Below, in pieces: positions 33,991 to 35,516 of a DNA stretch of 64,000 nt (positions are counted from its first letter, which is position 1; each line of letters starts with the position of its first letter). Below the pieces are notes generated by a model. The model saw only the letters and a list, made by a program, of their open reading frames with translations, was not told where the DNA came from and searched no databases. Source of the stretch: Ignavibacteria bacterium (GTDB taxonomy: Bacteria; Bacteroidota; Ignavibacteria; Ignavibacteriales; SURF-24). The position numbers were made by a program, and so were the translations under genes. The stretch covers positions 1 through 64,000 of the forward strand of contig JAAXKQ010000013.1 of NCBI GenBank assembly GCA_025612245.1, in the 5' to 3' direction.

Positions 33991-34019
33991 TTGACAAGTG
34001 CTCAATTGTTTACTATTAT
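33991..34019 (+). promoter_or_regulatory. Near-consensus sigma-70 promoter of lexA
   Basis: TTGACA (33991-33996) and TATTAT (34014-34019) are exactly 17 bp apart. The predicted start is near 34026, giving a leader of about 17 nt with no Shine-Dalgarno site. Confidence 0.75.
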
Positions 34020-34040
34020 TGTAGTAAACAATTGAGCACT
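33997..34040. promoter_or_regulatory. 44-bp perfect palindromic operator upstream of lexA
   Basis: AGTGCTCAATTGTTTACTA (33997-34015) recurs as its exact reverse complement at 34022-34040, with a 6-nt spacer TTATTG. The repeat covers the promoter spacer and minus-10 and ends 2 nt before the lexA ATG. The likely role is binding of LexA itself for autoregulation; that is inference. Each arm contains a CAATTG sub-palindrome, so several overlapping half-sites are possible. Confidence 0.75.
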
Positions 34041-34042
34041 AT

Positions 34043-34729
34043 ATGAAAAATAAACTGACTGACCGACAGGCCGAAATCCTGAATTTCATCCAAGGCTATA
34101 TTGAGCAAAACGGATACGCGCCTACTTTAAGGGAGATCGGGAAGAATTTCGCCATAGCCTCAACCTTCGGCGTAAAAAGACACCTGGATGCTTTGAGCAA
34201 AAAGGGATACTTAAACATTGGGAGCAACATCAGCCGTGCGCTTTCCCTGACAAACTGCAAGGAACAGGAAGATTTCCCCGCAAAGAGCAGCATCACCTCA
34301 GTTAAAACGGGCAACAGCCTGAGTGAAGAGCTGTATAACAGTTTCAGTCAGATACCAATCGTTGGACGCGTGGCAGCAGGAATGCCCATTCTTGCCATTG
34401 AAAACATAGACGGCAATGTGGTAATTGATCCTGCCATTAGCAAGAATAATCCAGGCTGCTTTGCACTCAAGGTCAAAGGCGACAGCATGATAAATGCCGG
34501 CATTTTTGAAGGGGACCTGATCATTATTTCTCCGCAGCCCTATGCCACAAATGGAGAAATTGTTGTTGCACTGCTTGGAGATGAGGCAACGGTAAAAAGG
34601 TTTGAGAAAAGGGATGACGACATCTATCTCATACCTGAGAACAGCAGTTACCCCCCTATACCGGTTCATCACAGGGAGGATTTTTCTATAGTTGGTAAAG
34701 TGGTCGGCGTTATCAGATGGTATAATTGA
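34043..34729 (+). CDS. lexA: LexA repressor
   Basis: LexA represses the SOS regulon and self-cleaves with RecA help. The 228-residue protein has an N-terminal winged helix-turn-helix (LTDRQAEILNFIQGYIEQNGYAPTLREIGKNF) at 5-57, then the cleavage site Ala112-Gly113 in GRVAAGMPI, Ser148 in GDSMINAG and Lys185 in EATVKRF. The 37-residue Ser-Lys distance equals that of E. coli LexA (119 and 156). The start has no ribosome site and follows a palindrome-covered promoter. A WYL-like mini-protein gene follows 10 nt later. Confidence 0.95.
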   Translation: MKNKLTDRQAEILNFIQGYIEQNGYAPTLREIGKNFAIASTFGVKRHLDALSKKGYLNIGSNISRALSLTNCKEQEDFPAKSSITSVKTGNSLSEELYNSFSQIPIVGRVAAGMPILAIENIDGNVVIDPAISKNNPGCFALKVKGDSMINAGIFEGDLIIISPQPYATNGEIVVALLGDEATVKRFEKRDDDIYLIPENSSYPPIPVHHREDFSIVGKVVGVIRWYN

Positions 34730-34739
34730 GGGAAAAACA

Positions 34740-34988
34740 ATGAAATCTCAGATTTTTACTTCGGCAATTTACAACAGGTTTAAGATCAAATTTCTTTACG
34801 GGCTCCAGGAGGTCGTGCTTGATCCTTACTTTTTAAGCTACGACAAGAACGGGCAAAAAGTAATCTACGGAAAAACATACCTCAGCAATGAGATAAAAAA
34901 GTACGAGTTCGCAAGAATTGCGAATATTAAGATACTGGACAGGAACAGGTTTTCCCCGGTTCTGCCCATTGCATCCAGAATTAACTAA
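34740..34988 (+). CDS. WYL-domain-like mini-protein next to lexA
   Basis: This 82-residue protein resembles a single WYL domain: KIKFLYGLQEVVLDPYFLSYDKNGQKVIYGKTYLSNEIKKYEFARIANIKIL follows the family pattern of a tyrosine-containing first strand, a DPY turn, a YGKTYL-like strand and an R-I turn. I set the start at 34740, where GAGGGA lies 7 nt upstream. The gene lies 10 nt after lexA and probably shares its transcript. WYL domains are thought to bind nucleic acids or ligands in bacterial regulators and defence proteins; here there is no DNA-binding partner domain. Function unknown. Confidence 0.5.
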   Translation: MKSQIFTSAIYNRFKIKFLYGLQEVVLDPYFLSYDKNGQKVIYGKTYLSNEIKKYEFARIANIKILDRNRFSPVLPIASRIN

Positions 34989-35014
34989 GTAACGTGGCTT
35001 AAAGGTTTTATTCG

Positions 35015-35044
35015 TTGACGTTTAATGTGTTTCGTATTTATAAT
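35015..35044 (+). promoter_or_regulatory. Possible sigma-70-like promoter of the 35067-35516 gene
   Basis: TTGACG (35015-35020) and a perfect TATAAT (35039-35044) are 18 bp apart, 23 nt before the GTG start. This gives the gene its own promoter beside the lexA unit. Confidence 0.5.
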
Positions 35045-35066
35045 GATTTGACAATGTAGAGAGAAA

Positions 35067-35516
35067 GTGAAAGTTATGAAGAATAATTCAAACAGAGAAA
35101 GCATAGATCAGCTCATAAAGCATTTCTGGCAGAATGGTTATCTGACCGTAAGCAGGAAATACGGCACCTATCTTCCGGCACCGGACCCGGTTGGCACATA
35201 CAGCATTGATGCCGTAGGAAGGTACGACAGAAAATACGCACTGGGGATTGTGCTCTCAACGCAGGACCTAGACGACAGCAGCATATTCAGCAAGCTGAAC
35301 TACCTGGCAACCAGGCAGACCAGGTTCAGCAATAATAAGGTTATGCTCTTTGTCGGAGTCGATCCTCTGAACCTCTCCAAGGCAAGGCTGACCGTGGAAA
35401 GCCTCAGCGAGGAGGCTAAAAAGAACATAAAGCTTGTAGTGCTGAGTGACAGTAAGGCAAGCGAACTGCCGAGAAAAGGGCAGCAGGGATTTAATACCGG
35501 TTTTTTGGGCCGCTAG
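35067..35516 (+). CDS. Small protein of unknown function, possibly nuclease-fold related
   Basis: The 149-residue product is predicted cytoplasmic. Its core IDAVGRYDRKYALGIVLSTQDLDD, then a helix SKLNYLATRQTRF and a strand VMLFVGVD, has the outline of restriction-endonuclease-like PD-(D/E)xK folds (an Asp-bearing strand, a hydrophobic strand, a helix, a strand). The catalytic E-x-K is not visible where expected, so nuclease activity is not supported. It starts with GTG at 35067, or ATG at 35076. It follows lexA and a WYL-like gene, but has its own TTGACG/TATAAT promoter. I do not recognise the family. Confidence 0.5.
   Translation: MKVMKNNSNRESIDQLIKHFWQNGYLTVSRKYGTYLPAPDPVGTYSIDAVGRYDRKYALGIVLSTQDLDDSSIFSKLNYLATRQTRFSNNKVMLFVGVDPLNLSKARLTVESLSEEAKKNIKLVVLSDSKASELPRKGQQGFNTGFLGR

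What the first reader, a model, noticed from the sequence alone, without database searches (positions are those of the whole stretch)
34043..35516. lexA followed by a WYL-like mini-protein and a small unknown protein
lexA, an 82-residue WYL-like protein 10 nt later, and a 149-residue protein with restriction-endonuclease-like outline but no visible catalytic E-x-K form a compact cassette. A stand-alone WYL domain linked to the SOS repressor is unusual, and the third gene has its own TTGACG/TATAAT promoter. This could be an undescribed damage-response or defence-linked module.
Basis: inference. Interest (0 to 1): 0.6.

Follow-up and report, generated by a model that had tools for sequence, protein, structure and literature searches.

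The report
LexA-controlled operon with two new proteins
In one whole order of bacteria (Ignavibacteriales), a DNA-damage repressor gene sits in a fixed operon with two small, unstudied proteins and carries its own control sites, and the same sites sit in front of one half of a DNA polymerase that these bacteria appear to make from two separate genes.

Summary
The three genes are real. They form a compact operon in nearly every Ignavibacteriales genome examined, and neither small gene was found outside the order. LexA here keeps its cleavage site and catalytic residues, and its promoter carries two 18-bp palindromes (AGTGnnCAnnTGnnCACT, 26 bp apart). The same palindrome precedes one other recurrent gene, a lone C-terminal half of DNA polymerase III alpha, in 37 of 41 genomes tested. 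Its N-terminal half lies elsewhere, often in a second LexA operon that has a different operator. recA carries neither site.

The 82-aa protein is a stand-alone WYL domain by profile and fold; its nearest solved relatives are damage or defence regulators (DriD, PafBC, CapW). It lacks their DNA-binding and dimerisation domains and most of the ssDNA-contacting residues. The 149-aa protein looks like a restriction-endonuclease fold without a catalytic ExK. Its "own promoter" is not conserved even in the sister species.

Damage response is supported by operators, not by induction data. Defence is not supported. What the two small proteins do remains inferred; a nucleic-acid-binding accessory pair induced with SOS is most likely. 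New variant of a known kind.

The parts
33991..34019 (+). lexA promoter: TTGACA (33991-33996), 17-nt spacer, TATTAT (34014-34019)
   Evidence: sequence; CTTGACA at or just before the first operator recurs in all 11 lexA upstreams printed
33997..34014 (.). LexA operator O1, AGTGCTCAATTGTTTACT, lying between -35 and -10
   Evidence: two sites in 57 upstreams, 26 bp apart in 53; shuffled upstreams reach 10 of 12 consensus bases in 1 of 1140 trials
34023..34040 (.). LexA operator O2, AGTAAACAATTGAGCACT; with O1 it makes an inverted repeat with 19-bp arms
34043..34729 (+). lexA1, cassette LexA repressor (228 aa), with Ala-Gly cleavage site, GDSM and VKR
34740..34988 (+). ORF2, stand-alone WYL-domain protein (82 aa), no HTH and no WCX
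35076..35516 (+). ORF3 (146 aa from ATG; 149 aa from GTG 35067), restriction-endonuclease-like fold, no (D/E)xK, variable C-terminal tail
35015..35043 (+). promoter-like TTGACG...TATAAT before ORF3; not conserved, probably not a part
   Evidence: the same-genus genome lacks it

Best explanation
This is an autoregulated SOS operon of the order Ignavibacteriales. SHOWN by sequence: LexA1 has the parts needed for RecA-stimulated self-cleavage; two operator-like palindromes overlap its promoter; lexA1, a stand-alone WYL protein (ORF2) and a nuclease-dead-looking restriction-fold protein (ORF3) are kept together in that order; the same palindrome sits in front of the C-terminal half of a split DNA polymerase III alpha. 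INFERRED: DNA damage lets RecA trigger LexA1 cleavage, which raises LexA1, ORF2, ORF3 and the polymerase half together. ORF2 (Sm-like barrel) and ORF3 (endonuclease-like fold without a nuclease centre) then bind single-stranded or damaged DNA as an accessory pair that works at stalled forks beside translesion synthesis, but not only as subunits of that polymerase, since 14 genomes keep the pair and have neither polymerase half.
For: Operon: lexA1 is 9-19 nt before ORF2 in most genomes, and ORF2 is mostly -4 to 26 nt before ORF3; 57-58 of 59 genomes, and nearly all of 31 named loci. Operators; the read-backwards control pattern hits in 1 of 59 genomes. Second target: 37 of 41 DnaE-C genes score 14 or more, against 1 of 31 DnaE-N genes and none of 30 recA loci; random 3-Mb sequence gives 7 such sites. 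DnaE halves: N has PHP+palm with PPDVDLDF, C has fingers+HHH+OB, meeting at about TIGR00594 position 570. LexA1 cleavage motifs. WYL fold: the 13 best chains are all WYL regulators, DriD first at Z 12.6. REase-like fold. Distances of LexA1, ORF2 and ORF3 correlate with each other (rho 0.63-0.73) more than with RecA (0.22-0.37).
Against: No induction, binding or mutant data. ORF2 lacks the residues that PafB needs for ssDNA, except two basic positions (PMC11804915). The ORF3 fold match does not exceed Z 8 and so may be only a common arrangement. Linkage is not absolute: G485 keeps ORF3 beside uppS without lexA1 or ORF2, and G035 and L205 keep lexA1 and ORF2 without a detected ORF3.
Confidence: 0.55

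Rival explanations
1. ORF2 and ORF3 are co-regulators of LexA1 itself: they sense ssDNA or DNA ends and speed up or hold back LexA1 cleavage or operator binding, as a feedback arm of the switch.
For: Both genes follow the cassette lexA, while the second lexA (LexA2) has no WYL or ORF3 beside it in the six genomes read. The WYL domain is an allosteric ssDNA sensor in DriD and PafBC. Distances correlate with LexA1.
Against: ORF2 has no DNA-binding or WCX domain and lacks most ssDNA contacts. ORF3 persists without lexA1 in G485.
Confidence: 0.2
2. ORF2 and ORF3 are accessory subunits of the split DnaE polymerase, taking the place that ImuA and ImuB have in the ImuA-ImuB-DnaE2 mutasome.
For: The shared operator ties the operon to DnaE-C in 37 of 41 genomes. 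Two of the four genomes where dnaE-C lacks a LexA1 site have it under LexA2 instead.
Against: 14 genomes keep ORF2 and ORF3 with neither polymerase half.
Confidence: 0.13
3. The two small genes are neighbours by conserved synteny only; ORF3 belongs to the uppS-bamA neighbourhood and has nothing to do with SOS.
For: uppS follows ORF3 in nearly every named locus with enough DNA beyond ORF3; ORF3 stays beside uppS in G485 after lexA1 and ORF2 are gone.
Against: Overlapping or near-touching genes behind one LexA-type promoter, and joint absence of ORF2 and ORF3 in G005, G498 and G515.
Confidence: 0.08
4. A phage-defence or toxin-antitoxin module.
For: WYL regulators of CBASS and BREX (CapW, BrxR) are among the fold matches, as are contact-dependent toxin nucleases for ORF3.
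Against: Single copy, order-wide and next to uppS; no match in plasmids, phages or viral contigs; no ExK; no PADLOC match for ORF3.
Confidence: 0.03

Closest known systems
LexA-regulated SOS operons such as lexA-imuA-imuB-dnaE2 (Erill 2006, Abella 2004, cited in PMC3919608)
   Same: autoregulated lexA in an operon, LexA sites at a C-family polymerase outside the replicative DnaE1
   Different: the downstream genes are a WYL mini-protein and a restriction-fold protein, not ImuA/ImuB; the polymerase is split in two genes; the operator AGTGnnCAnnTGnnCACT is not among the LexA boxes quoted in the passages read here
WYL damage regulators DriD and PafBC; CapW and BrxR
   Same: WYL (Sm-like) fold; ORF2 model Z 12.6 to DriD
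   Different: no HTH, no WCX, WYL motif and most ssDNA-contacting residues not kept; ORF2 cannot be a transcription factor of that kind on its own
PD-(D/E)XK superfamily proteins (EndoMS/NucS, XisH, BspD6I)
   Same: core strand-helix arrangement of the ORF3 model (Z 7-8), one conserved Asp
   Different: no (D/E)xK; a resemblance of fold only
Bacteroidetes SOS with duplicated non-canonical LexA (PMC8565304)
   Same: repressor duplication with diverged operators
   Different: there the repressor is not a LexA homologue and recA is in the regulon; here both are true LexA by profile and recA carries neither site

Membership tests
LexA repressor (TIGR00498) | profile score above the curated cut-off, winged-helix plus S24 peptidase domains | tested here: met
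   210 bits vs 111; PF01726 and PF00717
LexA repressor (TIGR00498) | Ala-Gly cleavage site and Ser/Lys dyad | tested here: met
   VAAGMP, GDSM, ATVKR in the window protein
LexA repressor (TIGR00498) | binds a palindromic operator at its own promoter | tested here: inconclusive
   two conserved palindromes found; binding not testable
WYL domain | sequence-profile match | tested here: met
   25 of 58 members hit PF13280, best 9e-4; the family profile finds 314-317-aa HTH-WYL regulators at 9e-6 to 2e-5; PADLOC WYL 5e-4. The window protein alone has no Pfam WYL hit
WYL domain | Sm-like fold | tested here: met
   model pLDDT 87; the 13 best chains are all WYL regulators, Z 9.7-12.6
WYL transcription factors (DriD/PafBC type) | N-terminal HTH and C-terminal WCX domain | tested here: not met
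   82 aa, all of it spanned by the WYL match
WYL transcription factors (DriD/PafBC type) | ssDNA-binding residues (PafB R181, Y196, R204, R208, R211, R214) | tested here: not met
   chained alignment ORF2-L149-PafB: only R208 (K53) and R214 (R/K59) are basic; R211 is E56, Y196 is K40 (residues from PMC11804915). The alignment is chained and its residue numbering was inferred, so single positions are uncertain
PD-(D/E)XK superfamily | core fold | tested here: inconclusive
   many REase-fold chains at Z 6-8, none clearly above background
PD-(D/E)XK superfamily | catalytic (D/E)xK | tested here: not met
   Asp48 nearly invariant, then A-[IL]-G-[IL] where ExK would be
SOS regulon | LexA operator conserved upstream | tested here: met
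SOS regulon | induced by DNA damage through RecA | not testable with these tools
   needs expression data
ImuA-ImuB-DnaE2 cassette | imuA and imuB in the operon | tested here: not met
   neither small protein matches these families; DinB in the LexA2 operon matches Pol IV models
Defence system | patchy, mobile distribution or match to a known system | tested here: not met
   order-wide and single-copy; no plasmid, phage or viral-contig homologue found

The most novel reading that the evidence does not exclude
Ignavibacteriales run a minimal, mutagenesis-centred SOS system with two LexA repressors of different operator specificity, each controlling one half of a split C-family DNA polymerase, so that an active enzyme forms only when both are relieved. 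LexA1 also controls two new proteins, a WYL mini-protein and a nuclease-dead restriction-fold protein, that form a new kind of ssDNA-sensing accessory complex.
Probability: 0.2. Interest if true: 0.88.

Novelty: new variant of a known kind. Interest (0 to 1): 0.7.

Why it matters
Two order-wide protein families with no assigned function gain a regulatory context (SOS) and testable folds. A stand-alone WYL domain tied to LexA would link two damage-sensing strategies usually described as separate: LexA/RecA, and WYL-ssDNA. The operator makes the regulon directly testable, and the split polymerase under two repressors is a natural test of how bacteria gate mutagenic synthesis.

Tried and rejected
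Defence or toxin module: rejected. ORF3's own promoter: present in the window, but the same-genus genome with an equally long gap lacks it and most other genomes have no room for it. Accessory to the split polymerase only: rejected as the sole role because 14 genomes keep ORF2/ORF3 without either half. recA under either LexA: no convincing site in the recA loci of 30 genomes. PDB sequence search with the ORF2 profile: no hit; with ORF3: only an RNase P protein at E 1.4. An intein in the split polymerase: none recognised at the N-half ends or C-half start (by eye), unlike the cyanobacterial split DnaE. The search for related loci with the full ORF2 alignment failed and was replaced by a narrower one. 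A first control on gene upstreams was spoilt because the fetched loci were themselves centred on the target genes; dnaE-N, recA and random sequence served as controls instead. Literature searches for a SOS study of Ignavibacteria or a split damage-inducible DnaE gave nothing direct; the library is open-access only, so this is not proof of absence.

Full report
OBSERVATION. lexA (34043-34729), ORF2 (34740-34988, 82 aa) and ORF3 (35067-35516; ATG at 35076) are present as described. LexA passes TIGR00498 at 210 bits. ORF2 and ORF3 have no Pfam or NCBIfam assignment of their own.

CONSERVATION. In 59 genomes of the order, ORF2 has a relative in 58, ORF3 in 57 and lexA in 59. They are adjacent and in the same order, with lexA-ORF2 gaps mostly of 9-19 nt and ORF2-ORF3 gaps mostly between -4 and 26 nt. 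Named records are Ignavibacteriales, Ignavibacterium and Melioribacter, with some labelled only Bacteroidetes; nearly all of those 31 loci show all three genes. Outside the order ORF2 was not found: in 296 genomes of the phylum only WYL regulators match, weakly. ORF3 was not found in the rest of the class. G005, G498 and G515 lack both small genes. Exceptions are G485 (ORF3 beside uppS, without lexA1 or ORF2), G035 and L205 (ORF2 without a detected ORF3). uppS follows ORF3 in nearly every named locus with enough DNA beyond ORF3. Distances of the three proteins correlate with each other more than with RecA; RecA is slow-evolving, so this is only suggestive.

ORF2. The family profile finds 314-317-aa HTH-WYL regulators at E about 1e-5, and 25 of 58 members hit Pfam WYL. 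AlphaFold gives pLDDT 87; the 13 best solved chains are all WYL regulators, led by DriD at Z 12.6. Hfq and designed barrels follow at Z 9. It has neither HTH nor WCX. Mapped through L149 onto PafB, only two of the six residues shown to matter for ssDNA binding (PMC11804915) are basic. The fold is therefore WYL, but ssDNA as ligand is an inference.

ORF3. The conserved core is residues 2-132. Gly24, Arg30 and Pro39 are invariant and Asp48 nearly so. The model (pLDDT 83) resembles restriction-endonuclease folds such as EndoMS, XisH and BspD6I at Z 7-8, which the tool warns can be background. No (D/E)xK is conserved, so nuclease activity is unlikely. Many family members end in a short hydrophobic tip (..LFS..FIN) after a variable linker, as partner-binding tails do.

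OPERATORS. Upstream of lexA1 lie two palindromes AGTGnnCAnnTGnnCACT, 26 bp apart in 53 of 57 genomes with full upstream sequence; every upstream has a site with at least 10 of 12 consensus bases, and shuffled upstreams reach 10 in 1 of 1140 trials. They flank and overlap the -10, with TTGACA just before O1. Across 59 genomes the exact pattern occurs 0-4 times each, and the read-backwards control hits in 1 of 59. In the window's genome, one mismatch allowed, five sites appear where the control gives three: two at lexA1, one at dnaE-C, the other two probably chance. On its own the genome-wide count in this one genome is therefore weak; the recurrence at the same gene across genomes carries the argument.

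SECOND TARGET. Most of the remaining sites lie at the start of a ~560-aa protein with DNA_pol3_finger, HHH_6 and OB domains, the C-terminal half of DNA polymerase III alpha. A second ~555-aa protein carries PHP and palm with an intact PPDVDLDF. The two halves meet at about position 570 of TIGR00594. C is found in 41 genomes, N in 40, both in 38; a full-length DnaE1 is also present. 37 of 41 C genes have a LexA1 site. N can lie in lexA2-DUF72-dinB-dnaE-N (G000), whose operator is ACCATACAnnTGTATGGT, mostly one site per genome where found; elsewhere N has moved. In G029 one LexA2 operon holds both halves; in G016 C has a LexA2 site; in G047 and G055 both halves share a LexA1 site. So the halves are mostly LexA-linked and often brought together, which supports a split enzyme, though activity is not shown. 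recA has no convincing site in 30 genomes.

MECHANISM. Shown: a lexA1 operon with operator-like palindromes and the same palindrome at dnaE-C. From established LexA biology: cleavage on damage. Inferred: ORF2 and ORF3 act together on single-stranded or damaged DNA. They cannot be polymerase subunits only, because 14 genomes have them without either half.

LITERATURE. Repressor duplication with diverged operators is known (PMC8565304). DnaE1 plus DnaE2 was listed for one Ignavibacteria genome, and that study joined or removed fragmented sequences (PMC3919608). No SOS study of this order was found.

VERDICT. Damage-response module: supported by operators and synteny. Defence: not supported. Novelty: new variant of a known kind, with two uncharacterised families.

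Noticed in passing
G000:C31:268932-270602 (L247) and G000:C15:59301-60911 (L257): A DNA polymerase III alpha encoded as two separate genes (PHP+palm; fingers+HHH+OB), without a visible intein, in 38 of 59 genomes of the order, next to a full-length DnaE1.
   Followed up: partly
L257:3553-7978: Second LexA operon lexA2-DUF72-dinB-dnaE-N with its own operator ACCATACAnnTGTATGGT.
   Followed up: partly
L416:1931-8241; L417:4188: In one genus both polymerase halves are under LexA2 (one operon in G029, a separate LexA2 site at dnaE-C in G016), a switch of repressor.
   Followed up: partly
ORF3 C-termini of many relatives, e.g. L004, L007, L014, L098: A short conserved hydrophobic C-terminal tip (..VLFS, ..FIN) after a variable linker, like a partner- or clamp-binding tail; absent in one family.
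   Followed up: no
L248:7340-8234: Three tandem copies of an 87-aa ORF (MFYTYIIESSANQRWYIGHT...), identical in the stretches printed, GIY-YIG-like by eye, near dnaE-C in G006.
   Followed up: no
L123:1259-2970: G005, which lacks the cassette, has a small S24-peptidase (UmuD-like) gene directly before a UmuC-like polymerase gene.
   Followed up: no
L229:1486-2040 and L233:2037-2534: LexA1-type sites also lie near DinB-superfamily (PF05163, not polymerase) genes in G014 and G056.
   Followed up: no
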